In this document: in pieces, positions 407 through 28,963 of the stretch
Layout: each line of letters opens with the position of its first letter
How positions within the stretch are numbered: position 1 is the stretch's first letter
Assembly (NCBI RefSeq): GCF_019798055.1
Contig: NZ_JAHOPH010000031.1
Coordinates: forward strand, 1-43,789
Direction of reading: 5' to 3'
Origin: Salsipaludibacter albus
GTDB taxonomy: Bacteria; Actinomycetota; Nitriliruptoria; Nitriliruptorales; Nitriliruptoraceae
DNA: 43,789 nucleotides
The notes under the pieces: model-generated
Told to the model about the DNA's origin: nothing
What the model saw: the letters and a program-made list of their open reading frames with translations, nothing else
Databases searched by the model: none
Program-made: the position numbers and the translations under genes

Positions 407-1411
407 TCAGTCGGAGGAGAAGGCCGCGTCGAAGGAGGACTCCGACGGCTCGATCGCGACGACCTTGCGGATGAACTCCTGGGCGTCCGGGCCGCCGAGC
501 TCGCGGTCCATGCCGGCGTCCTCCCACTCGACCGAGATCGGGCCCTCGTAGCCGATGGCGTTGAGCATCCGGATGATGGCCTCCCACGGCACGTCCCCGT
601 GCCCGGTCGAGACGAAGTCCCACCCACGTCGCGGGTCACCCCACGCCAGGTGCGAGCCCAGGCGGCCGTTGCGACCGTTGTCCTGGACCACCGACTCCTT
701 GCAGTCCACGTGGTAGATCCGGTCCTTGAAGTCCCACAGGAACCCGACCGGGTCGAGGTTCTGCCACACGAAGTGGCTCGGGTCGAAGTTCAGCCCGAAA
801 CCGGGACGGTGGTCGATGGCCTCGAGCGTGCGGACCGTGGTCCAGTAGTCGTAGGCGATCTCGGAGGGGTGCACCTCGTGGGCGAAGCGCACGCCGACCT
901 CGTCGTAGACGTCGATGATGGGGTTCCACCGGTCGGCGAAGTCCTGGTAGCCGGCGTCGATGGTCGCCTGGTCCACCGGTGGGAACATCGCGACGTAGTG
1001 CCAGATGGACGAGCCCGTGAAGCCGATGACCACGTCGACGCCGAGCTTGGCGGCGGCGCGTGCGGTGTCCTTCATCTCCTCGGCGGCACGCTGGCGCACA
1101 CCCTCGGGGTCGCCGTCGCCCCAGATGCGGGCCGGCAGGATCGCCTTGTGGCGCTGGTCGATGATCGAGTCACAGACCGCCTGGCCGACGAGGTGGTTGC
1201 TGATCGCGAAGGTCTCCAACCCGTGCTCTGCCAGGATCTCCTTGCGCGAGTCGATGTAGCCGTCGTCGTCCATGGCCTTGTCGACCTCGAAGTGGTCGCC
1301 CCAGCAGGCGAGCTCCAGACCGTCGTAGCCCCACTCCGCCGCCTTGCGGCAGATCTCGGTGAAGGGCATGTCGGCGAACTGTCCGGTGAACAGGGTGACG
1401 GGTCGTGGCAT
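407..1411 (-). CDS. Sugar phosphate isomerase/epimerase family TIM-barrel protein
   Basis: The 334-residue product has no signal peptide and belongs to the AP-endonuclease-2-like (xylose isomerase-like) TIM-barrel superfamily. Putative metal ligands are E179 in EVHPSE, D210 in NFDPSHF, the H234/D236 pair in YHVDCKE, and E295 in SVEWEDAG. Family members isomerise or epimerise sugars, and some act with Gfo/Idh/MocA oxidoreductases on 3-keto-glycosides. The exact substrate cannot be read from the sequence. The start at 1411 (MPRPVTLF) is preceded by AAGGA at a suitable distance; a longer frame upstream runs through hairpin-rich leader and is rejected. It is the last gene of the minus-strand sugar locus, 216 bp after the 2457-residue ThuA protein, and probably acts on sugar released by that enzyme. 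Confidence 0.85.
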
Positions 1412-1450
1412 GTCGTCGTCCTTGTCGTTGGGTCTGCACGGAAGAGGTGG

Positions 1451-1509
1451 GAGCGAGCGTCCCGGCGGATGTCCGGATGGCCGGTCATGCGCGCCGGGAC
1501 GTCGCTCGC
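1451..1509 (-). other. Long branched hairpin in the isomerase leader
   Basis: Arms 1451-1467 and 1492-1509 pair imperfectly (GCGAGCG and TCCCGGCG against CGCCGGGA and CGCTCGC with a small bulge). The enclosed loop holds a smaller CCGG/CCGG hairpin. It lies 40 bp upstream of the isomerase start at 1411. It could be a leader structure, a second termination barrier or an mRNA-stability element; nothing in it matches a riboswitch I know. Confidence 0.5.
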
Positions 1510-1521
1510 GGGGTCTGCACG

Positions 1522-1547
1522 GGTGTGGGGCCCGTAGGCCCCACACC
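1522..1547 (-). terminator. Perfect 11-bp hairpin between ThuA gene and isomerase
   Basis: GGTGTGGGGCC (1522-1532) pairs perfectly with GGCCCCACACC (1537-1547) around CGTA. It is the second of three consecutive hairpins in the 216-bp gap and is a probable intrinsic terminator or attenuator reducing read-through into the isomerase. Confidence 0.6.
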
Positions 1548-1627: not shown

Positions 1628-4600
1628 TCACGCTTGCTGGTAGAGCTCGGTCAGCGAGTCGACGATGACACGCCGCGCATCTGCGTCCTCGATCTGGACC
1701 GCCAGGTCGAGTGCCCGGTTGATCCACTGACGCACCTGCTTGGTCTTGTCACCCTTCTGGCCCGCCATCTTGACCGCCTTGTCGAGGTCGAATCGGATGT
1801 CGTCGGCCAGCTCGGAGCTGATCGACCCGTCCGCCTCGTAGGCGTCGATGAGGGCGAAGATGTCGTCGAACGACGTGGTGGTCGTGAACTCGATCGTCAC
1901 GGTCGTGGTGTTGCCGGCGACATCGGTCGCCTCCACGACGAGCGTGTGCTCACCCAGGTCCAGCTCCGCCAGGGCGACGTCCAGCGGCACCTCGGTGCCG
2001 ATGACGCTCCCGTCGATGCTGATCTCCACCGTGTCCAGTCCGCTGGTCGCGTCGCTGGCGTCGACCTGGAACGAGCCCGAGTTGCCGGCCTCGTCACCGT
2101 CGGCGATGCCCTCGACCGAGACCTCCGGATCGGTCGCGTCGATGTCGAAGGACACCGTCTCGACCTCGGTGGTCTCGTCCTCGCGGACTGCGCGCACCTC
2201 CACGGTGTGCGAGCCGTCGGTGTCGACGGTCAGCACGCCGTCCTCGTCGGCCACCCAGCCGGCGCCGTCGAGGTTGAACTCGACCGTCGCGTCGTCGTTG
2301 GTGGTCGCGGTGACGGTCACCGCGGACGTGTACCAGTCGTTGGCGCCGTTGGGCTCGGCCGGATCGACCGTGACGTCCAGCGTGAGGGGCTCGACCGTGG
2401 AGCAGTCGGCCTCCACCAGCCCGGCAGCGGTGGCGATGCCACCCCACAGGTGCTGGAGGAACAGGTCCTCGCTGTAGCTGGCCGTCGTGTGGCCGAGCGC
2501 GGTGTACCAGGAGCGGCCACCGTCGTAGTCGTGGCACCACGACATCGGGTGGTCGCCCATCGCCAGGCCGCCCACGTCGTAGGTCGACTCGTCGATGGTC
2601 ATGAGGACGTGGACGTCCTCACGCGGGTTCTCCTGGAAGGAGTACCACTCGTCCACGCGGGTCCAGTCCTCGGGCAGCATGGACGTCGACGGGTGGTCGA
2701 AGTCCTCGACGTGCAGCGTGGCCTCGGGGGTACCCGGCGGGTGACCCTCGAAGTACGCACCGACGAGGTCGCCGTACCACTCCCAGTCGTACTCGGTGTC
2801 CGACGCGGCGTGCACGCCGGCGAAGCCACCGCCGTCCTGGATGTAGCGCTCGAAGGCGTCCTGCTGGACCCCGTTGAGCACGTCACCCGTGGTGGACAGG
2901 AACACGACCGCGTCGAACTGCGCGAGGTAGGAGTCACTGAAGACGTTGGCGTCCTCGGTGACCACCGTCACGGCACCGTTGTCGTTGGCCAACTCGGTGA
3001 TCGCCTGCTGGCCCGCCTCGATGGATCCGTGGCGGAAGCCGGCGGTCTTGGAGAAGACCAGGATGCGTGGCGTGTCCTCCTCGGCGATCGTGAAGCTCGC
3101 CGAGCCGATGTCGCTGGTGTTGCCCTCGACATCGATCGCGCGGTACTCGATCGTGTGGTTGCCGATCTCGGAGACCTCGACCCCGGTCGTGTACTCCATC
3201 CAGTCGCCGCCGTCGAGGCGGTACTCGATGTAGTCCACGCCACTGTCGTCGGTCGCGTCGACCTGGACGGTGACCGTCCCGGCCGACGTGTCGAGGTTGG
3301 CGCACCCGATCGGCAGGCCGGTCGATCCGACGTGGATCATCACCGACTGCGCGCTCGAGCGTGCGGCCCAGTCCGCGGTCCCGGTCGCCGTGACGTTGCC
3401 GTCCGCGTCCGTGGTGAACCCACCGGTCGGGTCCTGGGTGTCCGACAGCCACAACTCGTTCGGGGGCTCGGTCGCCCCGTCCGGGTCGTCGCGGTAGTGC
3501 GGACCGTCCTCACCGCAGGCGAGGTCGTGCAGGTGCCCGCTGTAGTCGGCGTTGGGCTCCAGGCCACCGAGGTCCACGTCGATCGTGGTGGTGGACTCCT
3601 CCACGACCATCTGGGCGGTGCCCTCGATGGAGGTGCCGGTGGTCGGTGCGAACGCACCCTCGAACGTGCCGAGCAGGGTGGACGTCACCTCCGGGGCCGT
3701 GTCGTCACCGCCGTCGTCACCCAGGACGTGGAAGTAGTCGAACGCGATCGGCACGGAGCCGTTGGTCTGGTTCGTCCCGACCGTGAACGGTCCGACCGAA
3801 CCATCCTGCGCCACCGCCGCGTTGGTCACGGTGCTGGGCAGGTCGGTCCAGGTCTCGCCGTCGGTCGAGAACGCACCCGAGATGACGTCGCCGGAGCGGG
3901 ACATCCGCAACCACAGTTCGTCCTGGGGAGCCAGGGCCGGACCGTTGATCGCGTCCTCGATGGAGCCGTCGATCTCGCTCAGGAGCTCGACCAGGCCACT
4001 CGGCGTGTTGCCTGCCGTGTTGGTGACCACGTGGTCCAGCTTGACGTAGTTGTCGTCGTCGAGGTAGAGGATCACGCCACCCTGCTGGTACTGCTCGTAC
4101 AGCGCAGAGGTGTCGAGCTTGACCTCGACCGTCCACTCGTCCTCGGCCGGTTGCGGCTGCAGGATGAAGTTCGTGGGCGTGCCGTTCGGGGTCTGGTAGA
4201 TGTCACCGTCGCCCGTCTGGATCGTGAGCTCGCCGTCCGCGACCTCGTACGCACTCTCGTCGAGGCGCACGCTGTCGGTCCAGCGGCACAGCTCCAGCTC
4301 GGACCCACTGAACTCGTCGTTGGGGTCGACGGGACCACCGGTCCCGCCACCACCACCGGCGCCTTCGTAGGCGAACCAGTCGAAGCTGGCCAGCTCGTCA
4401 GCGGAATTGCCGGTCCCCGACAGGGCGAACAGCCCCATCTGGAGGTCGTCCCAGGCGGCAGGCGTCCCCGTGACCGCACCGGTGATGCCCGTCCAGCTCG
4501 ACCCATCGGTCGAGTACTCGGGCGTGATGGTGCCGTCGTCCGCGACGTTCAGCCGGAGCTGGACCTCGTCCGGGAAGCCTGCACCCACGGCCGGGCTGTT

Positions 4601-7600
4601 CACCTCGGTCGGGGCACCGTCGACCTCCCACAGGAACTGGACGACCCGGGCATCCGGGTTGGCGGCACCGGTGTCGCGGCCCTCGATGACGAGCTTCACG
4701 TAGTTGTCGTCGTCCTGGTAGAGCAGCAGGCCTGCCTGCTCGTAGGCCTCGTAGGCCGCGACGTCGACGACGGTCGTGATGGTCGCCTCGCCGTCCGGCA
4801 GCGGCCGCACGACGATGTTCGGGGTGTCGGTGTTGTTGGTCCCGTAGATGTCGGTCGCGGAGACCGGCATCGTCAGGTTCGAGTCCGCCACGACGAGGTT
4901 GCCGTCGGGACGGATCACCGTCCAGTCGCCGGAGAGGCTGGAGCCCTCGAAGTCATCGAGGATCCCGCCGCCACCGCCGCCGGCGCCCGCGTACTCGAAC
5001 CAGTCGAAGGCAGCTTCCTCGTCGGCGGGCTGGTTGTTGCCCGACAGCGCGAACATGCCCATCTGGAGGTTCTCGAAGTCGGCCCGGTCGGCCGTCTGGG
5101 AGAACGCGGTCCAGGTCTCGCCATCGGTCGACGAGTACGGGGTGATGAGGTCGCCCTCACCGACCAGCCGCAGGTACACGGTGTCGGGGTAGGCGGCGCC
5201 AAGTGCCGGTCCGTTGGTCTCGGCAGGACTGCCGTCGACCTCACTGACCAGCTGGAGCACCCGGGCAGCCGGGTCGGCCGCGTTGTTGTTGCGACCCTCG
5301 AGGACGAACTTGACGTAGTTGTCGTCGTCCTCGTAGAGCATCAGGCCGGCCTGCTGGTAGGCGTCGTACACCTGGGCCGTCACCTGGGTGGTGATCTCGA
5401 AGTCACCATCCGGCAGCGGCGTGTGCACGATGTTCGGCGTGTCGGTGTTGTTGGTCCCGTAGATGTCCGTCGCGGTCAGCGGCAGCACCAGGTTGGAGTC
5501 CTCGACGCGCAGGTTGCCGTCGGGACGCAGGACCGACCAACGAGCGTCGAGGCTGTCACCCTCGAAGTCGTCGAGGAAGCCTCCGCCGCCACAGCCGGGG
5601 CCGGGCGGGAAGTCCACCTCGATGTCGAACTCGGTGACCGAGCTCGCGCCCTCCGGGTCGGCCACGGTCAGGGTCGCCGTGTAGTCACCGGGTGAGGTGT
5701 AGGTGTGCTGGACGTCCATGCCGCTGTCCACGTCGCCGTCCCCGAAGGTCCAGTCGAAGGTCAGCGGGCTGTCGCCGTCGGGGTCGGTCGCCGTCGCGGA
5801 GAAGTCCACGTCCAGCGGTGCCTCACCCGATGTCGGGGTGGCCGAGGCGGTCACGTCCGGAGCACGGTTGCTGCTGACGCCGACGCCGTCGAACTCCATC
5901 CAGTTGACGTTGAACAGGCTGCCGGTGTTGTCCGTGGGCGAGTTCGCCACGAAGTACACGCTGTCGCTGGTCACGCCGTCGTCGAGATCGGCGGTCACCG
6001 TCGTCCACGACTGCCAGCCACCGGTCACCGGCACCTCGACGGTGCCCACGATCGGGCCGTCGGGTGCGTCGGTGCGGACCTGGATCTCGCCACCCGCGCC
6101 GGCCGAGGCCACGCGGAAGTCGATCGAGTCGATGCCGACCAGGTCGGCCGGGTCCATCGACCACCAGTCGCCGTCCTCGATGAAGCCGATGTTCTGGCCA
6201 CCACCGTCGTCGGTCGTGTCCTCGATCTGGACGCCTGCGTCACCGGTCCCGACGCTGTCTGCGGTGCGACCGGTCTCGGCGAAGTACTCCGCCTCGGTGT
6301 GGCGCAGGTTGAGCTTGACGACCTCCTGGCTGGTCAGGCTGCCGGCACCACCCTCACCACCGGTGTCGGTGTAGGTGAAGGTGATGACGCCGAAGATGTC
6401 CGCCCCGACGTGGCCGGTGTCACCGGGGATCGGGAACTCGCCCGAGCATCCGGTGTACTGGTCGTAGGGGTGGGCGTGCTCGTCGTGGCCCAGCGCGGGC
6501 TGGGTGACGACGTCCTCGCAGTCGACCGTGCCGTCCTCGGTGTCGGTGACGGTCACGTCGTAGGCGACGCTGTCACCGAACGAGAAGAACCCACCGTCGG
6601 CCGGCGCGTTCACCTCGATGGTCGGGGGCGTGTTGCCCGCCGTGATGGACACGCTCGCCGAGGCGGTGTCGCCCTCGTCGTCGGTCACGGTCAGCACGGC
6701 CGTGAACTGGCCACCGGTCGTGTACTCGTAGGACGGTTCCTCCTCGGTGGAGTCGACGGTTCCGTCGTTGTCGAAGTCCCAGGCGTAGGTGATGTCCCCG
6801 CCGTCGGGGTCGTTGGACCGCGCCGCCGAGAAGTTGACGGTCAGTGGCAGGCCACCGGAGGTGACGTCGGTGTCGATGCGCGCCACCGGTGAGCGGTCAC
6901 CACCGACGTACTCGATCTTGTAGATCCCGGAGTCGGGGTTGTTGTCCCCGTAGCCGTTGCCCCACTCGATGAGGTACAGCGAGCCGTCGGGGCCCCACTG
7001 GAAGTCCATCGTGCGGATGAACGAGTACTCGGTGAAGACCGGGTTGATCTTCTCGACCTTGTCGATGTCGTCGTCGACCTGGAAGGACCACCACGCGTTG
7101 TTGGTCCGGTTCCAGTCGGCGAAGATGTTCTTGCCGTCCCAGTACGCGGGCCACTTGACGTCGGACTCGAGGTCGGCGTCGTAGCGGTACGGGGCGGAGG
7201 TCATGGGGGCGCCGACGTTGCCGACCTCGGGCGTGCCGGTCGACGAGCGACCCATCCACTCCTCGGCCGGGATGGCCGGGGGCAGCTCGGTCAGCCCGGT
7301 GTTGTTGGGCGACTCGTTGACCGGGTTGGCGCAGTCGAACGCGCTTCCCGACGTGGACGTCGCGAAGTTGTAGTCGATGTAGGGCGTGTTGTTGCCGACG
7401 CAGTACGGCCAGCCGTAGTTGCCCGGCTCGTCGATGATGTTCCACTCGACCCGGCCGTCAGGACCACGGTTGGCGTTGGCCCCACCGGCATCCGGGCCGT
7501 AGTCGGCCAGGAGCACGGTGCCGGTCAACGGGTCGATGCCGAACCGGAACGGGTTGCGGAAGCCCATGCCGTAGATCTCGTCACGGATGAGGTCCTGGTT

Positions 7601-9001
7601 CTTGTCGGACGCCCAGTCGGTGTCCTGCAGGTTGCCCGCGGGGACCGTGTAGCCGCCCTCGTCGAGCGGGGTGATCCGCAGCAGCTTGCCGGACAGCGAG
7701 TTGGTGTTGCCCGAGGAGCGCTGCGCGTCCCAGGCGGAACGGCCGTCGCGCTCGTCGATCGGGGTGTAGCCGCTCGAGGCGAACGGGTTGGTGTTGTCAC
7801 CGGTGGAGATCCACAGGTTGCCGTCCGGGTCGAACTCCAGTTCCCCACCGGCGTGGCAGCACTCGGCGCGCTGGGTCGGGATGTTGAGGATCTCGACCTC
7901 GCTGGACAGGTCCAGCGTGTTGCCGTCCATCGTGAACCGGGAGACCTGGTCACCGGTGCCGCCGGAGGGCGAGTAGGTGAGGTAGACCCAGTTGTTGTCG
8001 GCGAAGTCCGGGTCGAGCGCGAGCCCGATCAGGCCGAACTCGTGGACCGTGGTGACCGGCAGGGTCCCCGCGGTCGAGACGGCACCGCCGTCGATGACCT
8101 TGAACTGGCCGGTGCGCTGGACGTAGAAGACCCGTCCGTCCGGGGTCACCTCGATGGCCATCGGAGCGGTCGGGCTGTCGTCGAGCGTGACCTTCTGGTA
8201 GTTCTCGGTCAGCGTGGCACCACAGTCGTAGGACACGGCGCCGGCCGCAGTCTGGATCCCGCCCCAGATCTGCTCGAGGAACTCGGCCTCGGAGAACGAG
8301 GCGTTGGTGTGGCCCAGGCCGGTGTACCAGGAGCGGCCACCGTCGTAGTCGTGGCACCAGGTGATCGGGTGGTCCAGGCCCATCGCGCCCGCGCCGGCGC
8401 CGTAGGTGGACTCGTCCATCGACTGCAGCACGTGGACGTCACCACGGGGGTTCGTCTGGAAGTTGTACCACTCGTCGGTGCGCTCCCACCGAGTCGGCAG
8501 GTGCGCGGTCGACGGATGGGCGTGGTCCTCGGTGATCACCGTCGCCGTCGGTGTCCCCGGTGGGTGGTCCTCGAAGTAGGCGCCCACCAGGTCGCCGTAC
8601 CAGGCCCAGTCGTACTCGGTGTCCGATGCGGAGTGGATGCCGGCGTAGCCACCGCCGCGCTGGATGTAACCCTCGAACGCCGCCTGTTGTTCGGCGTCGA
8701 GCACGTCACCCGTCGTGGACAGGAACACCACGGCCGCGTACTGGTCGAGGTTGTCCTCGTTGAAGGCGCTGGCGTCCTCGGTGGCGTCCACCGCGACGTT
8801 GTTGTCGGCGCCGAGCTGTTGGATCGCGGCGATGCCGGCCGGGATCGAGTCGTGTCGGAAGCCGGCGGTCTTGGAGAAGACCAGGATCGAGTAGTCCTCG
8901 GCGGTCTGCGCACTGGCAGGCTGGGCGAGGGCCACCACGGAACTCACGATCATCGCCAGCAAGGCGATGATGACGGTCAGGCGTTGGCGGGTTGCGCTCA
9001 T
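1628..9001 (-). CDS. Giant secreted double-ThuA / PQQ-sugar-dehydrogenase-like multimodular protein
   Basis: The product is 2457 residues with a Sec signal peptide (cleavage near residue 32, ASAQ). Approximate modules: ThuA-like 38-258; soluble PQQ-type glucose/sorbosone dehydrogenase-like propeller 265-700, with vicinal C381-C382 before H383; PKD 702-788; beta-rich linker 790-895; CBM6-like 899-1040; PKD 1045-1125; three concanavalin/DUF1349-like domains 1134-1337, 1340-1545 and 1557-1760; Cu/Zn-SOD or CHRD-like 1765-1905; Ig/OmpL47-like 1908-1972; a second ThuA 1977-2199; Ig-like modules 2200-2380; and a helical C-terminal domain 2380-2457 resembling FIMAH domains. Both ThuA copies keep the same conserved blocks (SKTAGFRH, DTEYDW, WCHDYDGGRSWYT). 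ThuA proteins are linked to trehalose/keto-sugar metabolism, but activity of this architecture is unknown. ATG at 9001 follows AGGAG. The first two lectin-like domains are a recent tandem duplication of about 615 bp. Confidence 0.9.
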   Translation of the reverse strand: MSATRQRLTVIIALLAMIVSSVVALAQPASAQTAEDYSILVFSKTAGFRHDSIPAGIAAIQQLGADNNVAVDATEDASAFNEDNLDQYAAVVFLSTTGDVLDAEQQAAFEGYIQRGGGYAGIHSASDTEYDWAWYGDLVGAYFEDHPPGTPTATVITEDHAHPSTAHLPTRWERTDEWYNFQTNPRGDVHVLQSMDESTYGAGAGAMGLDHPITWCHDYDGGRSWYTGLGHTNASFSEAEFLEQIWGGIQTAAGAVSYDCGATLTENYQKVTLDDSPTAPMAIEVTPDGRVFYVQRTGQFKVIDGGAVSTAGTLPVTTVHEFGLIGLALDPDFADNNWVYLTYSPSGGTGDQVSRFTMDGNTLDLSSEVEILNIPTQRAECCHAGGELEFDPDGNLWISTGDNTNPFASSGYTPIDERDGRSAWDAQRSSGNTNSLSGKLLRITPLDEGGYTVPAGNLQDTDWASDKNQDLIRDEIYGMGFRNPFRFGIDPLTGTVLLADYGPDAGGANANRGPDGRVEWNIIDEPGNYGWPYCVGNNTPYIDYNFATSTSGSAFDCANPVNESPNNTGLTELPPAIPAEEWMGRSSTGTPEVGNVGAPMTSAPYRYDADLESDVKWPAYWDGKNIFADWNRTNNAWWSFQVDDDIDKVEKINPVFTEYSFIRTMDFQWGPDGSLYLIEWGNGYGDNNPDSGIYKIEYVGGDRSPVARIDTDVTSGGLPLTVNFSAARSNDPDGGDITYAWDFDNDGTVDSTEEEPSYEYTTGGQFTAVLTVTDDEGDTASASVSITAGNTPPTIEVNAPADGGFFSFGDSVAYDVTVTDTEDGTVDCEDVVTQPALGHDEHAHPYDQYTGCSGEFPIPGDTGHVGADIFGVITFTYTDTGGEGGAGSLTSQEVVKLNLRHTEAEYFAETGRTADSVGTGDAGVQIEDTTDDGGGQNIGFIEDGDWWSMDPADLVGIDSIDFRVASAGAGGEIQVRTDAPDGPIVGTVEVPVTGGWQSWTTVTADLDDGVTSDSVYFVANSPTDNTGSLFNVNWMEFDGVGVSSNRAPDVTASATPTSGEAPLDVDFSATATDPDGDSPLTFDWTFGDGDVDSGMDVQHTYTSPGDYTATLTVADPEGASSVTEFDIEVDFPPGPGCGGGGFLDDFEGDSLDARWSVLRPDGNLRVEDSNLVLPLTATDIYGTNNTDTPNIVHTPLPDGDFEITTQVTAQVYDAYQQAGLMLYEDDDNYVKFVLEGRNNNAADPAARVLQLVSEVDGSPAETNGPALGAAYPDTVYLRLVGEGDLITPYSSTDGETWTAFSQTADRADFENLQMGMFALSGNNQPADEEAAFDWFEYAGAGGGGGGILDDFEGSSLSGDWTVIRPDGNLVVADSNLTMPVSATDIYGTNNTDTPNIVVRPLPDGEATITTVVDVAAYEAYEQAGLLLYQDDDNYVKLVIEGRDTGAANPDARVVQFLWEVDGAPTEVNSPAVGAGFPDEVQLRLNVADDGTITPEYSTDGSSWTGITGAVTGTPAAWDDLQMGLFALSGTGNSADELASFDWFAYEGAGGGGGTGGPVDPNDEFSGSELELCRWTDSVRLDESAYEVADGELTIQTGDGDIYQTPNGTPTNFILQPQPAEDEWTVEVKLDTSALYEQYQQGGVILYLDDDNYVKLDHVVTNTAGNTPSGLVELLSEIDGSIEDAINGPALAPQDELWLRMSRSGDVISGAFSTDGETWTDLPSTVTNAAVAQDGSVGPFTVGTNQTNGSVPIAFDYFHVLGDDGGDDTAPEVTSTLLGTFEGAFAPTTGTSIEGTAQMVVEESTTTIDVDLGGLEPNADYSGHLHDLACGEDGPHYRDDPDGATEPPNELWLSDTQDPTGGFTTDADGNVTATGTADWAARSSAQSVMIHVGSTGLPIGCANLDTSAGTVTVQVDATDDSGVDYIEYRLDGGDWMEYTTGVEVSEIGNHTIEYRAIDVEGNTSDIGSASFTIAEEDTPRILVFSKTAGFRHGSIEAGQQAITELANDNGAVTVVTEDANVFSDSYLAQFDAVVFLSTTGDVLNGVQQDAFERYIQDGGGFAGVHAASDTEYDWEWYGDLVGAYFEGHPPGTPEATLHVEDFDHPSTSMLPEDWTRVDEWYSFQENPREDVHVLMTIDESTYDVGGLAMGDHPMSWCHDYDGGRSWYTALGHTTASYSEDLFLQHLWGGIATAAGLVEADCSTVEPLTLDVTVDPAEPNGANDWYTSAVTVTATTNDDATVEFNLDGAGWVADEDGVLTVDTDGSHTVEVRAVREDETTEVETVSFDIDATDPEVSVEGIADGDEAGNSGSFQVDASDATSGLDTVEISIDGSVIGTEVPLDVALAELDLGEHTLVVEATDVAGNTTTVTIEFTTTTSFDDIFALIDAYEADGSISSELADDIRFDLDKAVKMAGQKGDKTKQVRQWINRALDLAVQIEDADARRVIVDSLTELYQQA

Positions 9002-9267: not shown

Positions 9268-10440
9268 TCACTCGGCGACCTCCTGCCAGCAGCCGTCGGC
9301 GGCGGCAGAGTCCTCCACCGCAGCCAGGACGCGCTGGACCGACAGGGCGTCGGCGAACGACGGCGTCGGATCGGTCTCGTCGCCGATCGCGCGCACGAAG
9401 TCGGCGATCTCGTGGACGAAGGTGTGGTCGTAGCCCAGGACGTGGCCCGGCGGGTACCACGAACCGGAATAGGGGTCGGCGCCCTCGGTGGCCAGGACGC
9501 GGGTGAACCCGCCCGTGGCCGGGTCTGCCGTGGCGTCGTGGACCCACAGCTCGTTCATCGCCTCGAACGAGAACTTCAGTCCACCCTTCGAGCCGTACAG
9601 CTCGATGCCCATGTCGTTCTTGGCGCCGGCGGCGAAGCGGGTCGCCTCGAAGCTGGCGAGGGCACCGGAACGCATCCGGCCGATGAACAGTGCGGCGTCG
9701 TCGACCGTGACGTCGCCGTACTCGTCGCCACCGGTGCCCGACAGGCCGTCGTCGGAGCCGGACGGCAACGGGCGCTCGGTCACGAAGGTGTGCAGCAGCG
9801 CCGACACCCCAGCGACCCGGTCGCCGAGCAGGAACTGGGTGGCGTCGATGATGTGCGCGCCGATGTCGCCCAGGGCACCCGAGCCGGCGTGCTCCTTCTG
9901 CAGGCGCCAGGCCAGGGGGAACTCGGGGTCCAGCAGCCAGTCCTGCAGGTAGCGGGCCCGAACGTGGTGGATCTCGCCCACGGCGCCCTGGGCGATCATC
10001 TGGCGGGCGAGGGCGAGCGCGGGGACCCGGCGGTAGTTGAACGCCACCATCGAGCGCACGCCGTCGACGTGCGCCTTCTCGGCGGCCTCGACCATCGCCT
10101 CGGCCTCGGCGACCGAGTTGGCCAGCGGCTTCTCGCACAGCACGTGCTTGCCGGCCTCCAGCGCCGCGATCGCGATCTCGGCATGGCTGTCACCGGGCGT
10201 GCAGATGTCGACCACGTCGATGTCGTCGCGGTCGAGCACGCTGCGCCAGTCCGTCGTGGACTCCGCCCAGCCGAGCCGGCTGGCCGCCGCCTCGGTGCGC
10301 TCCGCGTCGCGGCCGGCGACCACCACCATGCGCGGGTCGCGCGGCAGGTCGAAGACGGCCGGCGCGTTGCGCCAGGCATGGGAGTGTGTCCGTCCCATGA
10401 AGGCATGGCCCACCATGGCGATGCCGAGCGGCGTGGTCAT
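9268..10440 (-). CDS. Gfo/Idh/MocA family NAD(P)-dependent sugar oxidoreductase
   Basis: The 390-residue cytoplasmic enzyme has an N-terminal Rossmann fold (IAMVGHAFMG, residues 7-16), the hallmark EKP motif (E103-K104-P105, with the catalytic-type lysine), and the GDIGAHIID segment with D192, H196 and D199 that usually shapes the sugar site. Such enzymes oxidise or reduce sugar hydroxyls; some, including rhizobial ThuB and 3-keto-glycoside-forming enzymes, work with ThuA or TIM-barrel partners. ATG at 10440 follows AGGAG. It lies 84 bp after a sugar-binding protein gene and its terminator-like hairpin, and before the double-ThuA gene, so it is part of the second transport/catabolic module. 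It is paralogous to the gene at 27808-28956, though the two are clearly diverged. Confidence 0.88.
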   Translation of the reverse strand: MTTPLGIAMVGHAFMGRTHSHAWRNAPAVFDLPRDPRMVVVAGRDAERTEAAASRLGWAESTTDWRSVLDRDDIDVVDICTPGDSHAEIAIAALEAGKHVLCEKPLANSVAEAEAMVEAAEKAHVDGVRSMVAFNYRRVPALALARQMIAQGAVGEIHHVRARYLQDWLLDPEFPLAWRLQKEHAGSGALGDIGAHIIDATQFLLGDRVAGVSALLHTFVTERPLPSGSDDGLSGTGGDEYGDVTVDDAALFIGRMRSGALASFEATRFAAGAKNDMGIELYGSKGGLKFSFEAMNELWVHDATADPATGGFTRVLATEGADPYSGSWYPPGHVLGYDHTFVHEIADFVRAIGDETDPTPSFADALSVQRVLAAVEDSAAADGCWQEVAE

Positions 10441-10524: not shown

Positions 10525-11613
<1,089 letters not shown>

Positions 11614-11728
11614 GCTGGTGCTCCTGGTTGACCGGTGCTGCCGGATCTGTTGGTGTGGGCGGTGCGGGTGACCCGGCGCCGAAGCCCACGTGCTCGGCCT
11701 CCGGGTGTTCGGGGGTTGGTGCGGGGGG

Positions 11729-12739
11729 TCATGCGTGTGCACCATCGGACCCGCGCTGGGTCCGCTGCTGCAGCAACACGGCCAGGACGATGATCACGCC
11801 CTTGGCGATGTTCTGGAGATCGGTGGTGAGGTTGTTGAGGACGAAGATGTTGGTCATGACGGTGAAGACCAGCACGCCCAGCACGGTGCCCACCATGGTC
11901 CCGCGGCCACCGGCCAGGCTGGTGCCGCCGATGACCACCGCGCCGATGGCGTCCAGCTCGTAGAGGTTGCCGTGCGTCGAGGACCCCGTCGTGGTGCGCG
12001 CGACGATCATGATGGCCGCGATCCCGCAGGCCAGGCCGGACAGGGTGAACAGCAACATCGTCTGGCGCTTGACGTTGATGCCGGCGAGCCGGGCTGCCTC
12101 GGGGTTGCCCCCGACCGCGAAGGTGCGGCGGCCGAAGGTCGTGCGGTTGAGGACGAACCACCCGATCGCGGCCACCACGATCAGCATGACGACCAGGTTG
12201 GGGATCCCGAAGACGTCACCGTTGTTGAGACTGCGGAAGGCGCTGACCTCGACGATCTGGGTCTGGCCGTCGGAGATGTACTGCGCGAGGCCACGGGCGG
12301 ACACCAGCATCGCCAGCGTCGCGATGAACGACACGATCTTGCCGTAGGCGATCAGCACGCCGTTGACCAGGCCCGTGGCCGTGCCGACCGCCAGGAAGGC
12401 GAACAGCATCCCCCACAGGCCCATCTCCTGGGAGGCGACCGTGGTCCCCCACACCGAGGCGAGCGCCACGATCGCCCCGACCGACAGGTCGATGCCTCCA
12501 CCGATGATCACGAACGTCATGCCGACGGAGACGACGCCGATCACGGCGGCCGACTTGAGGATCGTCAGGAAGTTGTTGGCGTCGAGGAAGGTGTCGGGCG
12601 ACGTGACCCAGCCCGCGACGAAGGCCAGCACGAGCACGGCGATGAGGCCGAGGTTCTGGGTGTCGCCGAGGCGGTCGCGCCACGAGGTGCCACCGTTGCT
12701 GGCACTGGTCTCGTCGAGCGTGGTCACGGTGTCATTCAT
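11729..12739 (-). CDS. CUT2 sugar ABC transporter permease
   Basis: The 336-residue integral membrane protein has multiple hydrophobic helices and the family segment GGGIDLSVGAIVALASVWG, typical of RbsC/XylH/YtfT-type permeases. A conserved cytoplasmic segment (FAVGGNPEAARLAGINV) faces the ATPase. ATG at 12739 lies 8 nt inside the end of the ATPase gene (stop 12732-12734), with GGGAG in front, so translation is coupled. As the only permease of this transporter it should form a homodimer with one double-domain ATPase. The binding-protein gene follows after 115 bp. Confidence 0.9.
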   Translation of the reverse strand: MNDTVTTLDETSASNGGTSWRDRLGDTQNLGLIAVLVLAFVAGWVTSPDTFLDANNFLTILKSAAVIGVVSVGMTFVIIGGGIDLSVGAIVALASVWGTTVASQEMGLWGMLFAFLAVGTATGLVNGVLIAYGKIVSFIATLAMLVSARGLAQYISDGQTQIVEVSAFRSLNNGDVFGIPNLVVMLIVVAAIGWFVLNRTTFGRRTFAVGGNPEAARLAGINVKRQTMLLFTLSGLACGIAAIMIVARTTTGSSTHGNLYELDAIGAVVIGGTSLAGGRGTMVGTVLGVLVFTVMTNIFVLNNLTTDLQNIAKGVIIVLAVLLQQRTQRGSDGAHA

Positions 12740-14384
12740 CGTGGGGGCTCCCGGGGGCGACGTGGTCGCCGTCGGTCGATTCGGACGTCGTGCTCGAGTC
12801 GTCGGCAGGGTCGTCGGCCGAGTCGTCGGCAAGGACCTTGTTGGGGTCGTCGTCCACGTGGGTGGTGTTCTCCATGATCATGTCGAGGACGTCGTCCTCC
12901 TCCAGGGCACCGCCGGTCTCGCGTTCGATGATCCGACCGTCGGCGATCACCAGCACGCGATCGGCGAGGCCGAGGACCTCGGGGATCTCGCTGGACACCA
13001 CCAGCACGGCCACACCCTCGTCCGCGAGCTCGCGGACGAGGCCGTACAGCTCGGCCCGGGCGCCGACGTCCACCCCGCGAGTGGGCTCGTCCAGCAGCAG
13101 GATCTTGCAGCCGTGGAGCAGCCAGCGCCCGACGACGACCTTCTGCTGGTTGCCACCCGACAGCGTGCTGACCTTGCGGGTCGCATCCGGTGGCCGCAGC
13201 TCGAGCTGCTCGGTGATCGCCTGTGCGTCGTCCACCTCGGCCTTGGCGCCGATCCAACCCGCGGTGCTGAACTTGTGCAGGTCGGACAGGGACATGTTGC
13301 GGGCGATGGACTGGCCCATCAGCAGGGCCTGGGACTTCCGCTCTTCGGGGGCCAGTCCCAGTCCGTGCTTGACCGACTTGGTCACCGAGTTGCGGCCCAT
13401 GCGCTCGCCGAAGAACGACACCGTGCCGCTGGTCGCCTTGCGGGCGCCGTAGATGGTCTCGAGGATCTCGGAGCGCCCCGACCCGACCAGTCCGGCCAGC
13501 CCGACGATCTCGCCCTCGCGGACGTCGAACGACACGTCCTTGAACTCGCCCGTGCGCGACAGGCCGTCGACCTCCAGCGCGACCTCACCGAGGTGGTCGG
13601 TGCCCTCGCGGCGCTCCGGGAACAGGTACTCGACGTTGCGCCCGGTCATGAGCGACACGATCTCGGAGGTGGACGTGGACTTGGCGTCCAGCCCGGTGGC
13701 CACGGTGGCGCCGTCCTTGAGCACGGTGACCCGGTCGCCGATCTCGCGGATCTCCTCGAGCCGATGGCTGATGTAGATGATCGCGACGCCGTCCTCGGTC
13801 AGCTCGTGGATGACCCGGAACAGGTTCTCGACCTCGTCGTTGTCGAGCACGGCGGAGGGCTCGTCCATGACGATCAGCTTGGCGTCGTGCGACAGGGCCC
13901 GGGCCATGGACACGATCTGCTTGCCGGCGGCGGACAACGACCCGACGGTCCGTCGGACCCGGATCTCGCCGTGGCCGAGGCGCTGCATGATCTCGCGGGC
14001 CCGCTTGTTGGAGCTGCGGGTGTCGATCCAGCCGAGCCGCGACTTCTCGTGGCCGAGGAAGATGTTGTCGGCGACGGTCAGGCCGTCGATCAGGTCCAGC
14101 TCCTGGTACATCGTGGCCAGGCCGGCCTGCAGCGCCGCGAGCGGGGTGGCGAACGAGCGGTCCTCGCCGAGCCAGTTGATCGTGCCCTCTTCGGGCGTGT
14201 GCGCGGCCGACAGGACCTTGATCAGGGTCGACTTGCCGGCACCGTTCTGGCCGAGCAGGCAGTGCACCTCGCCGGGACGGACATCGAGGTCGACGCCGTC
14301 GAGCGCACGGACCCCCGGAAAGACCTTGACGATGTCGGTCATTCTCAGGATCGGCGCGGCGGTGTCCGTCGCGACGTCGGGCAT
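12732..14384 (-). CDS. CUT2 sugar ABC transporter ATP-binding protein (two ATPase domains)
   Basis: The 550-residue protein is a tandem ATPase of the RbsA/XylG/MglA type. Domain 1 has Walker A GQNGAGKST (45-53), signature LSAAGKQ and Walker B LIVMDEPSAVLD. Domain 2 has the usual degenerate Walker A (GLVGSGRSEI), signature LSGGNQQK and Walker B ILLLDEPTRGVDVGA. About 45 residues at the C-terminus are acidic and low-complexity (many D, S, T), beyond the usual family length near 500. I choose the ATG at 14384 because GGGGGAG stands 6 nt upstream; an in-frame ATG at 14450 has no ribosome-binding site. First gene of the second transport operon, behind a good sigma-70 promoter at 14482-14510. Confidence 0.9.
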   Translation of the reverse strand: MPDVATDTAAPILRMTDIVKVFPGVRALDGVDLDVRPGEVHCLLGQNGAGKSTLIKVLSAAHTPEEGTINWLGEDRSFATPLAALQAGLATMYQELDLIDGLTVADNIFLGHEKSRLGWIDTRSSNKRAREIMQRLGHGEIRVRRTVGSLSAAGKQIVSMARALSHDAKLIVMDEPSAVLDNDEVENLFRVIHELTEDGVAIIYISHRLEEIREIGDRVTVLKDGATVATGLDAKSTSTSEIVSLMTGRNVEYLFPERREGTDHLGEVALEVDGLSRTGEFKDVSFDVREGEIVGLAGLVGSGRSEILETIYGARKATSGTVSFFGERMGRNSVTKSVKHGLGLAPEERKSQALLMGQSIARNMSLSDLHKFSTAGWIGAKAEVDDAQAITEQLELRPPDATRKVSTLSGGNQQKVVVGRWLLHGCKILLLDEPTRGVDVGARAELYGLVRELADEGVAVLVVSSEIPEVLGLADRVLVIADGRIIERETGGALEEDDVLDMIMENTTHVDDDPNKVLADDSADDPADDSSTTSESTDGDHVAPGSPHDE

Positions 14385-14481
14385 CTGCACTCCCCCGGCG
14401 GTTGGGCGTTTCCGGTGTGGGACCCGCGTGGGCGGCTCCCGCTCGGCCATGTTGACCGAGTGTTAATTAGTTGTGGCGGGC

Positions 14482-14806: not shown

Positions 14807-17800
14807 TCAGCCGAGGTCGTCGACCAGGGCCCGAAGGTTCGCGCCCAGGACCTCGCGGACCTCGGGGTCGTCGACCTGCTGCAGCCGGTCCAGCGCGCGT
14901 TGGAAGGCACCGGCAGCCTGGCTGGTCCGCCCACCGTCGAGGTGGCGCATGCCCACCTCGACCTGCTGGCCGACCTGTCGTGCGACGCGGGCGTCCAGCG
15001 CACCTTCCTCGACGAACTGGTCGATCAGTGCGAGCACGTCCTCACCGGAGGTGGTGATGGTGAAGGACAGCTCGGTGGTCGTGACGTTGCCCGCGACGTC
15101 GGTCGCCTCGACGGTGACCGCGTGGTCGCCCAGCGACCAGTCCCGGGCGGTGAGGGTGGCGGACACCTCGTCGGTGCCCTCGCCCACGACCTCGCCGTCG
15201 ACCATGACCACCAGCGACGCCATGCCGCTGGTCGCGTCGTCGGCCGACACGGTCACGTCGACCTCGGACGAGCTGCCGACCTCGACGCCGTCGGTGACGC
15301 CGTCGACGGCGACCCCGGGCGCGGTGGCGTCGAGGTCGATGGCGACCTCCGCCACGTCGGTGGTCTCGCCCCCGCGGATGGCCCGCACCGCGACGGTGTG
15401 GGACCCGTCGGTGTCGACCACCAGCACGCCGTCGTCGTCGGCCACCCAACCGTCACCATCGACGTCGAACTCGATGGTCGCGTCGTCGTTGGTCGACGCC
15501 GTGATCGTGACCGGGCTGACGTACCAGCCGTCCTGGCCGTCGGGGTCGGTCGGGTCGACGACCACGTCCAGCTCCAGCGGCTCCGTGATGGTGAACGATG
15601 CCTCACCGACCACCGACGTGTTGCCGGCGGCATCGGTCGCACGCCACGTCACCACGTGGTCACCCGGCTCGTCGACCGTGAACGGGCCGTCGTAGACGAT
15701 CCACTCACCACCGTCGAGCGTGTACTCCACGGACGCCACGCCGACGTCGTCACTCGCGTCGAGGACGACCTCGACCGGCTCCGACGTGGTGTCGAGCGTC
15801 GCGCAGCCACGGGGCAGGCCGAACTCGCCCGCGTGGACGTACACCGACTGGGCGGTCGAGCCCGCGGTCCACGGCGCGGAGCCGTCCACCGTTGCCTCGC
15901 CGTCACCGTCGGAGGTGAAACCGGCCGCGGGGTCGCTGTCGTCGTCGAGCAGCCACAGTTCGTTCGGCGGCTCCTCGACACCGTCGGGGTCGTCCTGGTA
16001 GTGCCCGCCCATCGGCACGGCACCACACACGTCCTCGTGGAGGTGGCCCTGGTGGGTCGTGTCGGGCTCCAGCCCGGACAGGTCCGCGGACAGCGTGGTG
16101 CCGTCCTCGGTGACCTCCAGGGTCGCGGTCCCGGCGGTGTCCCACCCGGCGGTCGGGGTGAACGCACCCGTGAAGGTGCCCAGCAGCGTGGCGCTGGCCT
16201 CCGGCGCGGTGTCGTCGACGACGTCGCCGCCGTCGACCCGGAACCAGTCGAAGTCGACCGTCACCGGCGACTGCTGGCTCGGGCCGATGGCCCAGAGGCC
16301 GAACGTGTCCAGGTCACCGGCGTTGGTGACCGGCTCGCCGACCTGGGTCCAGTTGATCCCACCGTCGCTCACCCAACCGGTGTAGGTGTCGCCCTCCTTC
16401 GCCAGGCGCAGGTACCAGTACCCGGACTCGGTGGTCTCGGCGACGTCGAGCAGGCGGTTGCCGCCGGCACCGAAGTTCGCATCGACCTCACTGACCAGTT
16501 CGGTTCCCAGGTCGAGCGCCGATCCCGGAGCGTTGCGGGCACCCACGTTCAGCTTGACGTAGTTGTCGTCGTCGCCGTACGCGAGCAGCCCGGCGAGCTG
16601 CCACTGGGTCTCCAGCGGTGCCCGCATCCGGGTCTCGATCGTCCAGTCACCGTCGGGGGCGTCCTGGAGGATCATGTTGCGTGGGTCGCCGTTGTCCGTG
16701 CCGTTGATGTCGCCGAGGTCGGTGGTGATGGACAGGTGTCCGTCGGCCACCTCGACCTCGGAGGCGTCGGCCCGCACGATGGCGTTCCAGCGGCAGGTGT
16801 CCAGCGCGTCCCCGTCGAACTCGTCGGAGGGCGCCGGAGCCTCGGCATCGTCGTCCGCCGTGGCGAGGGTCGCGGACTCGACGTGGGCCACCTGCTCGGA
16901 GGCGGTGACGTCACCGCCGGCCATGATGCCGATGGTGGCATCGGCCTTGACGGGCGCGGAGCCCGACAGGTCGGTCCAGGTCGAGCCGTCCAGCGAGTAC
17001 GCCGCCGTGATCGCACTGCCGTCGCTGGTCAGCTGCAGGTGGACCGTGTCCGGTCCGCCCGCGAGGGCGACGTTGTTGGCGTGCCACGTGCGGCTGCCAG
17101 CGGTCTCGGTCTGGAACTCCAGGAACGGAGCCCCGGACGTCCCCTGCGTCCAGGCCAGCTTGACGTACTCGTCGTCGCTGGCGTGCAGGAGCAGCCCGGC
17201 GTGCTGCCACTCGCGCGTGTGCTCGAGTGACACCTCGGTCGTGAACGTCCACTCGCCGGCGGGTGCCGGGCGGGCGACGTAGCTGATCGGGCCGGTGCTG
17301 CCCTCGTTGATGTCGCCGGCGGTCACCGGCAGGTGCAGGGCACCGTCGGACACGCTGACGGGGTCGCCGTCGGCCTCGCGGACGGTCGTCCACGTCCCGG
17401 TGTCGAGGGCGTCGCCCTCGAAGTCGTCGGCCGAGCCGACGGCACACGCCGGGAAGGGCTCGTACTCGGGCTCCTGCGGCTCGTCGGGCAGTCCCTCGAC
17501 GATCGAGAAGTTCGAGAACTGCGCCGTCGCCCGACCACTCGTCGAGTGGGCGGTGACCGCCACCCCGACGTCCTGCACGGCGGCGGCACTGTCCACGGTG
17601 GCCGGGTCCCCGACCTCCGTCCAGTTCTCGCCGTCCGCACTGCGCCAGGCCTGGTAGGTGTCGCCGTCACGGGTCACCCGCATCCACTGCGGGTACACGA
17701 CCGCGCCACCGTTCTGGGACGCGTCCAGCAGTCCGTTGCCGTCCAGGTCCTGCATCCACTCGAGCCCGCTGGTGCTGTTGCGGGCGCCGAGGTAGACGTA

Positions 17801-20800
17801 GCCGCCGGACGATCCGGCCGCGGTGATGTCGTTGCGGACCATGATGCCGGCCTTGCCACTGGTGGACACCGACTCGTGGCTGTCCAGCCGGACGGTCGCC
17901 GTCCACTGGTCCCACTCCGCTGCGGCCGGCTGGAACGCCGCGCCGTACTCGTCGGCCGACGTCCACATGTTGGCCCCGCCCGACTCGATGATCCAGGTGT
18001 CGGAGTCGGGCCGCTCGAAGGTGGCCGCGGCCGCCTCGTGGGAGTAGGTCTGCCACCCGGCGAACAGGTCACCGACGTCGATGCTGATCGCACGCGACGT
18101 GGTGGTCACGCCGGTGGTGCTGGTCGCGATCGCCTCGATGACGTAGCGACCCTCCTCGTCCGGCGTCCAGGTCACCTCGAAGGGCGCCGTGGTGTCGGTG
18201 CCGACGGACTCGTCGTCGACCAGGAACTCGACCTGCTCGATGCCGTTGTCGGGGTCCGACGCGTCGGCGGTCAGGGTGACCTCGCCCACCTCGTCGATGA
18301 CGGCGTAGGGCTCGGGGCTGGTGATCTCGACCGTCGGGACGGTCGAGTCGGACAGGCCCTGGCCCACCGCCTCGATGAAGTTGACCCGACGCTCGCCCGG
18401 ACCGGGCATCACCACGTACAGGGTGAAGGACTCGCCGGGGTCGGTCACGTCGACGGTCACGTCGACGAACCGGGTCAGCCCGGTGGCCGGCACGTCGGCA
18501 GTGCCCAGGAGCGGGCCGTCGGGTGCGTCCATGCGCAGCTCGATCGGGCCACCCTCGCTTGCCGCCGCACGCACGGTCAGTGCGTCGATGTTGGCCAGGT
18601 TCACCGGGTCGTGGCTGAACCACGCCCCGTCGGAGCCGCCGAGCGCCTCACCGTGTCCGGCGACGTCGCGCGACTCGCTGACGGTGATGCCCTCCCTGTC
18701 GTCGGCGAACTCGGCCTCCTTGAGACGCGGGTACACGGCGACCGTGTCGGAGCTGGTCAGCGGTGGTTGGCCATTGGCACCCGCGTCGGTGTAGCGGGCG
18801 TCGATGACGAAGAAGATGTTCTCGTCGGGGGCGTGGCCACCCAGCGAGGTCTCGACCGACCCGGTGAGCCCACGGAACTCCGTGGTCGGGTGGGCATGGC
18901 CGTCGTGGCCCAGGGCGGGCTGGACGATCACGTCGTCGGGATCGATGGTGTCCTCGGCGTCGGTGACGTCGACCTCCCAGCTGATGGTCGAGCCGAAGTC
19001 GAAGAACGCACCGTCCGGTGGAGTCTCGACCTCGACGTCAGGTTCAGTGTTTCCGACGGTGATCGGCACGGTGGCCGTCCCGACCTTGCCCTCGGGGTCG
19101 GTCACGGTCAGGCGGGCGTCGTAGACCCCGACCTCGTCGTAGGTGTGCGTCGCATCGACACCGGTGGCGTCGACGATCCCGTCAGCGTCGAAGTCCCAGG
19201 CGTAGGACAGCGAGGCTCCCTCGGGGTCGCTGCTGCGGGCGCCCGAGAAGGTGACCTCCAGCGGCGCCTGGCCCGACTCGGGGTCGGCGTCGATCTGGGC
19301 GATCGGCGAGCGTGACCCGGAGATGTAGTCGATCCGGTGCAGTCCGGAGTTGGGGTTGTCGCGCCCGAAGCCGCCACCCCAGTCCAGCACGTACAGCGAC
19401 CCGTCGGGCCCGAACAGCGAGTCGATCGGGGCCAGGAACTGGGTCTGGGGCAGGAAGGGGTTGACCTTCTCCACTGCCTGGCCGGGCTCGTAGGCGTCGG
19501 TGGTCGCGGTCTCGTCCAGCACGAACGAGAACATGCGGTTGCGGGCCCACTCGTAGAAGAACGGCTTGCCGTCGTAGTACTCGGGGAACTTGGTGTCGGA
19601 GTCCAGGGACTCGTCGAAGTGGTAGGTCGGACCACCCATCGGGGCCAGGCCGCCACCCTGGTTCAGGCCCGAGCCCTGGTCGGAGGCGCGCTGGTAGCCG
19701 TAGTAGACGTCGGCCGGCTGGACCGGCGGCAGCTCGGTGAGCCCGGTGTTGTGGATCGAGTCGTTGATCGGCGCGTCGCAGTCGAAGAAGTCCCCGACGG
19801 TCACCGGGCTGGTCAGGTAGTCGACGTCACGGAAGGGCTCGTTGGCACCCATGCACAGGGGCCAGCCGTAGTTGCCGGCCTCGGTGATCCAGTTCCACTC
19901 GGCGATGCCGGCCGGACCGCGGGTGGCCGGGGCGTCGTTGTTGTTGTCCGGCGAGTAGTCGGCCAGGCCGACGTCACCGGTCACCGGGTCGACGAAGAAC
20001 CGGAACGGGTTGCGGAAGCCCATCGCGTAGATCTCGGGCCGGATGAGGTCGGTGTCCTTGTCGGCCGCCCACTCCGTGTCGATGAGGTTGCCGTCCGGGA
20101 TCGTGTAGCTGCCGTCGGCCTCGGGGTGGATGCGCAGCAGCTTGCCACGCAGGTCGTTGGTGTTGGACGAGGTCGCGCGGGCGTCCCACAGCATCGTCGA
20201 CGACTCGTGCAGCGGCGCGTAGCCACCGGACGGCTCGGAGTGTGGGTTGACGTCGTCACCGATCGAGATGTAGAGGTTGCCGCCGGGGCCGAAGCGCAGT
20301 CCACCACCGGTGTGGCCGGGCTCGTCGGGCAGTCGGCTGGACGGGAACTCGATGACGAGCTCCTCGGAGGCCGGGTCGATCGTGCCGGTGTCGTCCATGG
20401 TGAAGCGCGACACGCGGCTGAAGAAGCTGGCCGGGTCGCTGTTGTCGGCACGGTCGGGTGCCCAGTAGACGAACACGTGGCCGTTGTCGGCGAAGTCGGG
20501 GTCCAGCGCGATGCCGAGCAGCCCGTCCTCACCACCGGAGTAGACGTCCAGCTCGACGGCGGTCTCGGTGGTCTGGGTGGCGGGGTCGTACACGCGGATC
20601 TGGCCGCGGACCAGCTCGGTGAAGAAGACGCGGCCGTCGGCGGCGACGTCCATCGCGAACGGCGCGGAGGTGTTGGAGTCCAGGGTCACGCGCTCGTACT
20701 CGGACCAGTCGGTGCCGCCGCAGTCACCCTCGGCCAGGCCGGCCGCCCACTCGACGCCGCCGACGATGTGCTGCACGAAGTCGGGCTCGTCGGTGTAGTG

Positions 20801-21526: not shown

Positions 21527-21711
21527 GGATCGGGCTCCGGGGGTCGTCGTCGGGGGGACGCCGTCGAGGCGGCGGGCGACGGAAGCCTGCACGCAGTCCG
21601 TCTGGTCAGTGTGGGGCGGTGGAGGTCGGTCGTGGGTCGATCGGTGGGTGCTCGGGTGGTGGGGACGCCGGCGGCCGACCCCGGGGGGCGGCGCCGATCG
21701 GGGTCACGGTG

Positions 21712-22572: not shown

Positions 22573-22641
22573 GGGTGCTCCTGGGAGGGTCGGGGGGTGG
22601 GTCCCCCGAGCGCCGGGGGGAACGTGCGCACGCTCGGGGGG

Positions 22642-22672
22642 GCGGGGAGCCGGGCACGGCCCGGCTCCCCGC
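22642..22672 (-). terminator. Strong 14-bp hairpin after the first sugar-binding protein gene
   Basis: GCGGGGAGCCGGGC (22642-22655) and GCCCGGCTCCCCGC (22659-22672) form a perfect stem with a 3-nt loop, just 3' of the stop at 22681. The arrangement matches that after the other binding-protein gene. Confidence 0.8.
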
Positions 22673-22680
22673 GGGATGGA

Positions 22681-28956: not shown

Positions 28957-28963
28957 GCGGCGG

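What the first reader, a model, noticed from the sequence alone, without database searches (positions are those of the whole stretch)
1628..9001. Two ThuA domains in one protein, about 1,940 residues apart
The second ThuA copy (about 1977-2199) matches the first (38-258) in nearly all conserved blocks, including SKTAGFRH, DTEYDW and WCHDYDGGRSWYT. It stands at the far end, after the lectin-like and SOD-like modules. Both look intact, so the protein may act at two sites or hold two ends of a polymer. Two near-identical lectin-like domains also show a tandem duplication of about 615 bp.
Basis: seen in the sequence. Interest (0 to 1): 0.6.

Follow-up and report, generated by a model that had tools for sequence, protein, structure and literature searches.

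The report
Secreted sugar protein with two ThuA domains
A large secreted bacterial sugar-processing protein carries the same ThuA domain at both ends, both with a complete conserved core; the second copy groups with a sister gene's ThuA rather than with the first copy, and similar double-ThuA proteins exist in at least two other bacterial lineages, so it is an unusual variant of a common family rather than a new kind of protein.

Summary
One minus-strand gene (1628-9001, ATG, 2457 aa, no internal stop) encodes a signal-like N-terminus, ThuA1 (38-258), a PQQ-type sugar-dehydrogenase propeller (GSDH), PKD, CBM6, PKD, three ConA-like lectin domains, a Cu/Zn-SOD-like domain, an OmpL47 repeat, ThuA2 (1978-2200) and an OmpL47/Ig/FIMAH-like tail. 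The ThuA copies share 67% aa and 74% nt identity, so assembly did not copy one from the other; all 34 columns conserved in at least 95% of 113 relatives are kept in both. The two similar lectins are 62% aa identical, not near-identical; a third is present.

ThuA2 groups with the C-terminal ThuA of a paralogue in the same genome that lacks ThuA1 (100/96). ThuA1 groups with an Acidimicrobiaceae orthologue that lacks ThuA2 (100/98). A ThuA1+ThuA2 clade is rejected (p-AU 0.02). The neighbouring giant gene has the same C-terminal repeats without ThuA2. Other double-ThuA proteins: Solirubrobacter (an internal duplication) and Verrucomicrobiota (with cytochrome c).

The gene lies in a two-transporter sugar operon with Gfo/Idh/MocA and xylose-isomerase-like enzymes. 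I propose surface oxidation of a glycan, with ThuA domains handling the oxidised (possibly 3-keto) sugar. Function is inferred.

The parts
1628..9001 (-). Whole gene, 2457 aa secreted multidomain protein (P0001)
8909..9001 (-). N-terminal signal-peptide-like stretch (residues 1-31)
   Evidence: sequence read; no signal-peptide program run
8228..8890 (-). ThuA1, residues 38-258
   Evidence: Pfam PF06283; conserved columns
6893..8218 (-). GSDH-type beta-propeller (PQQ sugar dehydrogenase-like), residues ~262-703; His383 in the motif aligned to solved relatives
   Evidence: PF07995 E 5e-32; PDB matches 2ism, 3a9g, 1c9u
6632..6892 (-). PKD domain 1, residues ~704-790
5882..6250 (-). CBM6 carbohydrate-binding module, residues ~918-1040
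5624..5872 (-). PKD domain 2, residues ~1044-1126
4988..5581 (-). ConA-like domain 1 (GH43_C2/DUF1349)
4364..4966 (-). ConA-like domain 2, tandem duplicate of domain 1 (offset 615 bp, 72.8% nt)
3722..4336 (-). ConA-like domain 3, a separate subtype
3287..3706 (-). Cu/Zn-SOD-like domain, residues 1766-1905; four His at the copper-ligand motifs (1823, 1825, 1835, 1890) and Cys pair 1829/1900 invariant in 12 relatives
3080..3286 (-). OmpL47-type repeat a, just before ThuA2
   Evidence: NF047446
2402..3070 (-). ThuA2, residues 1978-2200, lying between two OmpL47-type repeats
1631..2395 (-). OmpL47-type repeat b, bacterial Ig-like (Big_7) and FIMAH-like tail
   Evidence: Pfam below cut-off
407..1546 (-). 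Xylose-isomerase-like TIM barrel (AP_endonuc_2), downstream neighbour
9268..10440 (-). Gfo/Idh/MocA NAD-dependent oxidoreductase, upstream neighbour
10525..14450 (-). Ribose-type sugar ABC transporter: binding protein, permease, ATPase
14807..21592 (-). Second giant ThuA-GSDH protein (P0002); same C-terminal repeats without ThuA2 ('empty site')
21712..30730 (-). Second cassette: TIM barrel, binding protein, permease, ATPase, ROK regulator

Best explanation
This is a secreted, multidomain glycan-oxidising protein of the actinobacterial ThuA-GSDH family that carries a second ThuA module. Proposed working: the CBM6 and three ConA-like domains hold a polysaccharide or glycoside; the GSDH propeller oxidises sugar units; the two ThuA domains bind and process the oxidised (possibly 3-keto) sugars; the adjacent sugar ABC transporters, the Gfo/Idh/MocA oxidoreductase and the xylose-isomerase-like enzymes take up and finish the products. 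ThuA2 was not recently copied from ThuA1. It belongs to a lineage shared with a paralogue that has ThuA only at its C-terminal end, so the protein combines two ThuA positions (by fusion or domain insertion, or as the surviving double ancestor). Shown: architecture, conserved cores, gene relationships, operon-like neighbourhood. Inferred: chemistry, substrate, division of labour.
For: Domains. Both conserved cores complete. ThuA2 with the C12 C-terminal ThuA 100/96, ThuA1 with L058 100/98; ThuA1+ThuA2 clade rejected, p-AU 0.0205. C12 matches residues 1705-2453 at 56% and has no N-terminal ThuA. L058 is 62% identical over residues 5-1547 and matches on to 1974, without ThuA2. P0002 and G022 have the same repeats joined directly where ThuA2 sits. 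Neighbours: Gfo/Idh/MocA, two TIM-barrel isomerase-like genes, two sugar ABC transporters and a ROK regulator. 21 of 80 related loci have both Gfo/Idh/MocA and TIM-barrel homologues nearby. A paralogue carries a 3-keto-disaccharide hydrolase domain (PF06439). An oxidoreductase plus a sugar-phosphate-isomerase-like enzyme cleave C3-oxidised glycosides in Agrobacterium: PMC10628242.
Against: No ThuA domain has a demonstrated reaction in the papers I could read; solved ones are annotated 'putative'. A structural relative is the levan-binding domain of a surface glycan-binding protein, so ThuA may only bind sugar (PMC7618045). P0001 itself lacks the 3-keto hydrolase domain. No chance baseline was computed for the 21/80 neighbourhood count. 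The direction of change (gain in this lineage, or loss in L058 and C12) is not resolved: in the smaller tree all four domains form one group.
Confidence: 0.55

Rival explanations
1. ThuA domains here are sugar-binding modules, not enzymes: two binding domains at the ends of a long protein increase grip on a polymer or cross-link it while the GSDH propeller oxidises it.
For: The levan-binding domain of a Bacteroidetes surface glycan-binding protein resembles ThuA-like 1T0B (PMC7618045; 8aa2 also appears in the fold search). The rest of the protein is rich in binding domains.
Against: A large set of polar and charged residues (His, Asp, Glu, Arg) is conserved in both copies and in distant ThuA proteins, more than binding modules usually keep (the last point is judgement, not a test).
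Confidence: 0.25
2. The double-ThuA form is ancestral: an old protein had both ThuA domains, L058 lost the second, and C12 is a duplicate that lost the first. (This concerns origin and is compatible with either function.)
For: In the smaller tree ThuA1/L058 and ThuA2/C12 form one four-member group (96/91), as an ancient duplication would give.
Against: No single-ThuA relative examined keeps a ThuA remnant at the other position; P0002, G022 and C11 have no ThuA2; the four-member group was not resolved in the larger tree.
Confidence: 0.3
3. Assembly artefact: a chimeric contig or misjoined paralogues.
For: The genome is in 79 contigs and no other genome of the class has the fusion.
Against: The copies differ by 26% nt and the C-terminal part is only about 56% aa identical to C12; GC3 and codon usage are uniform along the gene; the orthologue L058 matches continuously up to residue 1974, past the SOD and first OmpL47 domains; the same-strand gene run continues beyond both ends.
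Confidence: 0.04

Closest known systems
ThuA family PF06283 (solved: 4jqs/4pxy, 4e5v, 1t0b)
   Same: Both copies score far over the cut-off; the predicted fold of ThuA2 matches 4jqs with TM 0.79
   Different: Here two copies in one secreted 2457-aa protein; the solved chains are about 250-280 residues with one ThuA
Actinobacterial secreted ThuA-GSDH-PKD-CBM6-lectin proteins (e.g. the L058 Acidimicrobiaceae orthologue; relatives in Jiangellaceae, Micromonospora, Promicromonospora)
   Same: L058 has the same domain order up to the SOD and OmpL47 domains, 62% identity over about 1550 residues
   Different: They have one ThuA, mostly at the N-terminal end; the window protein has an extra lectin and ThuA2
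Solirubrobacter sp. CPCC 204708 double-ThuA protein (L124, 2776-aa frame)
   Same: ThuA-GSDH-PKD-CBM6-PKD-lectins-ThuA
   Different: ThuA copies are each other's sisters (independent internal duplication); cupredoxin at the start; PKD instead of SOD/OmpL47 around ThuA2
Verrucomicrobiota double-ThuA proteins (L136/G427, Pedosphaera MAG; G642)
   Same: Two ThuA in one frame; in L136 near both ends with DUF7133 between
   Different: DUF7133, HEAT repeats, cytochrome c; distant ThuA subtypes
3-keto-glycoside cleavage pathway (Agrobacterium, PMC10628242; Nasseri et al. Nature 2024, known here only from its citation and own knowledge)
   Same: Gfo/Idh/MocA oxidoreductase and sugar-phosphate-isomerase-like enzymes next to the gene
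   Different: No ThuA is mentioned in PMC10628242; activity here untested

Membership tests
ThuA (PF06283) | Profile match over the curated cut-off for each copy | tested here: met
   268 and 258.5 bits against a cut-off of 33.4
ThuA (PF06283) | ThuA-like fold | tested here: met
   AF2 pLDDT 97.3; Foldseek best hits 4jqs, 4e5v, 1t0b; only ThuA2 was folded
ThuA (PF06283) | Family-conserved residues kept in both copies | tested here: met
   34 of 34 columns
ThuA (PF06283) | Trehalose or other sugar utilisation activity | not testable with these tools
   Needs biochemistry
Glucose/sorbosone dehydrogenase (PF07995) | Profile match and the conserved His motif of the propeller | tested here: met
   E 5.2e-32; HAGG aligned to HSGG of 2ism and HNGG of 3a9g
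Glucose/sorbosone dehydrogenase (PF07995) | PQQ binding and sugar oxidation | not testable with these tools
   Not assayed
Cu/Zn superoxide dismutase (SOD-like module) | Fold and copper-ligand His motifs | tested here: met
   Profile hits to SOD, E 4e-5; fold hits, TM about 0.57; HxH, HY and H(125) invariant in 12 relatives; assignment of these His as copper ligands is by position
Cu/Zn superoxide dismutase (SOD-like module) | Zinc ligands and catalytic Arg | tested here: inconclusive
   Not evident by eye near the invariant Cys; no Pfam Sod_Cu hit
3-keto-glycoside cleavage locus | Gfo/Idh/MocA oxidoreductase and isomerase-like TIM barrel next to the gene | tested here: met
3-keto-glycoside cleavage locus | 3-keto-disaccharide hydrolase domain in this protein | tested here: not met
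   Absent from P0001; present in paralogue C11
3-keto-glycoside cleavage locus | C3 oxidation and cleavage activity | not testable with these tools
   Needs biochemistry

The most novel reading that the evidence does not exclude
Double-ThuA proteins arose repeatedly by different routes (module combination here, internal duplication in Solirubrobacter, another build in Verrucomicrobiota), with a GSDH propeller or a DUF7133 domain between the copies in the three cases read. This would point to a cooperative two-ThuA machine in which a central oxidase feeds two ThuA sites acting on one glycan chain.
Probability: 0.15. Interest if true: 0.5.

Novelty: new variant of a known kind. Interest (0 to 1): 0.32.

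Why it matters
ThuA is widespread in sugar-utilisation loci, yet I found no demonstrated reaction for it in the papers I could read. A protein with two complete ThuA domains, a sugar dehydrogenase and lectins, next to 3-keto-type sugar enzymes and transporters, gives a concrete setting to test whether ThuA acts on oxidised sugars. The pair of giant genes with and without ThuA2 in one operon (P0001 and P0002) offers a natural comparison.

Tried and rejected
Assembly-made duplication: rejected by divergence and uniform composition. Recent internal copying of ThuA1 to ThuA2: rejected by trees and AU test. 'Unique to this genome': rejected, since L124 and Verrucomicrobiota also have double-ThuA frames. 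Pfam identification of the SOD-like domain failed for the single sequence; profile and fold searches succeeded. pN/pS values (0.30-0.60) lie under 1 but are weak evidence because GC3 of about 0.93 compresses synonymous change. Literature searches for ThuA chemistry gave little.

Full report
Observation. The window is contig C25 of a 4.25-Mb, 79-contig genome. A single ATG frame on the minus strand, 1628-9001, encodes 2457 aa. Pfam and NCBIfam give: ThuA 39-250, GSDH 279-535, PKD, CBM6, PKD, three GH43_C2/DUF1349 (ConA-like) domains, OmpL47 repeats around the second ThuA, and an Ig/FIMAH-like tail. The ThuA copies are 67% aa and 74.3% nt identical. The lectin pair lies 615 bp apart at 72.8% nt / 62% aa; a tree shows that it is a tandem duplication in this lineage of the first of two ancestral lectin types, since the orthologue L058 has one of each.

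Are both copies intact? Of the columns conserved in at least 95% of 113 near ThuA domains, all 34 are kept in both copies; about a dozen (for example H123, D127, H146, E177, Y179, R223, H231 and their ThuA2 counterparts) are also kept in most of the 16 distant ThuA sequences sampled. ThuA2 was predicted with pLDDT 97.3 and matches 4jqs, 4e5v and 1t0b. ThuA1 was not folded separately. Which of these residues are catalytic is not known.

Where did ThuA2 come from? A tree of 129 ThuA domains puts ThuA2 with the C-terminal ThuA of paralogue C12 (100/96) and ThuA1 with L058 of an Acidimicrobiaceae MAG (100/98). In a 44-row tree the ThuA1+ThuA2 pair is rejected at p-AU 0.0205, while the four domains together form a group (96/91); so an old duplication is possible, a recent one is not. 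The bootstrap of both trees had not fully settled, so support values are rough. C12 (L044:3394-8556) has GSDH, PKD, CBM6, SOD-like, OmpL47, ThuA, OmpL47 and tail, with no N-terminal ThuA, and matches residues 1705-2453 at 56%. L058 is orthologous up to residue 1974 and then differs. The neighbour P0002 and its G022 relative have the same two OmpL47 repeats joined directly where ThuA2 stands in the window protein. Composition and codon usage do not change along the gene.

How rare is it? No other frame with two ThuA matches was seen among the matches listed for 66 genomes of the class and 396 of the phylum (one split match, G091, is a fragment pair in different frames). Among 80 loci from named genomes, one more was found: Solirubrobacter sp. 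CPCC 204708 (L124), whose two copies are sisters. Two Verrucomicrobiota genomes have double-ThuA frames of about 1700 aa; the one read has DUF7133, HEAT repeats and cytochrome c between the copies. The match list was cut, and other phyla were not surveyed.

Surroundings. All genes from 30730 down to 407 that I annotated are on the minus strand: ROK regulator, ABC ATPase, permease, binding protein, TIM-barrel isomerase-like, P0002, ABC ATPase, permease, binding protein, Gfo/Idh/MocA, P0001, TIM-barrel isomerase-like. Homologues of both the Gfo/Idh/MocA and a TIM-barrel gene occur in 21 of 80 related loci (no chance baseline computed). Paralogue C11 has a 3-keto-disaccharide hydrolase domain. 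In Agrobacterium, C3-oxidised glycosides are cleaved by a sugar-phosphate-isomerase-like enzyme, with a further such enzyme and a Gfo oxidoreductase assigned to later steps (PMC10628242). This is the basis for the proposed chemistry, which is inference.

SOD-like module. Residues 1766-1905 have no Pfam family, but a 12-sequence profile matches solved SODs, Cu-only SODs among them, and the predicted structure matches Cu/Zn SOD. The His at the copper-ligand motifs are invariant in 12 relatives. Whether it has SOD activity is open.

Verdict. A real, intact, uncommon architecture of a known secreted protein family, with a partly reconstructable origin and a plausible but untested role. The taxon (perhaps class Nitriliruptoria, a guess from genome sizes of relatives and my own knowledge) was not established.

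Noticed in passing
window 14807-21592 (-): A second giant ThuA-GSDH protein (P0002, GTG start, 2261 aa) in the same gene run, each giant with its own transporter set; P0002 lacks ThuA2.
   Followed up: yes
L053 (G000:C3), around 125518-129078: A further ThuA-GSDH relative with an in-frame TGA in the aligned stretch; may be a frameshifted or decayed copy.
   Followed up: no
L045:3438-10241 (-): Paralogue C11 joins ThuA, GSDH and a 3-keto-disaccharide hydrolase domain in one protein.
   Followed up: partly
G423 (genome of L124, Solirubrobacter sp. CPCC 204708): 24 ThuA matches in one 7.6-Mb genome, while only 9 of 149 genomes drawn from its class have any.
   Followed up: no
L136:1883-6901: Verrucomicrobial protein with ThuA at both ends of a DUF7133, HEAT and cytochrome c protein.
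   Followed up: partly
L065, L067, L078 and L050: Two giant single-ThuA genes close together in several genomes, a possible source for fusions.
   Followed up: no
window 31830-33377 (-): Photolyase-related (DPRP) protein upstream of the gene run.
   Followed up: no
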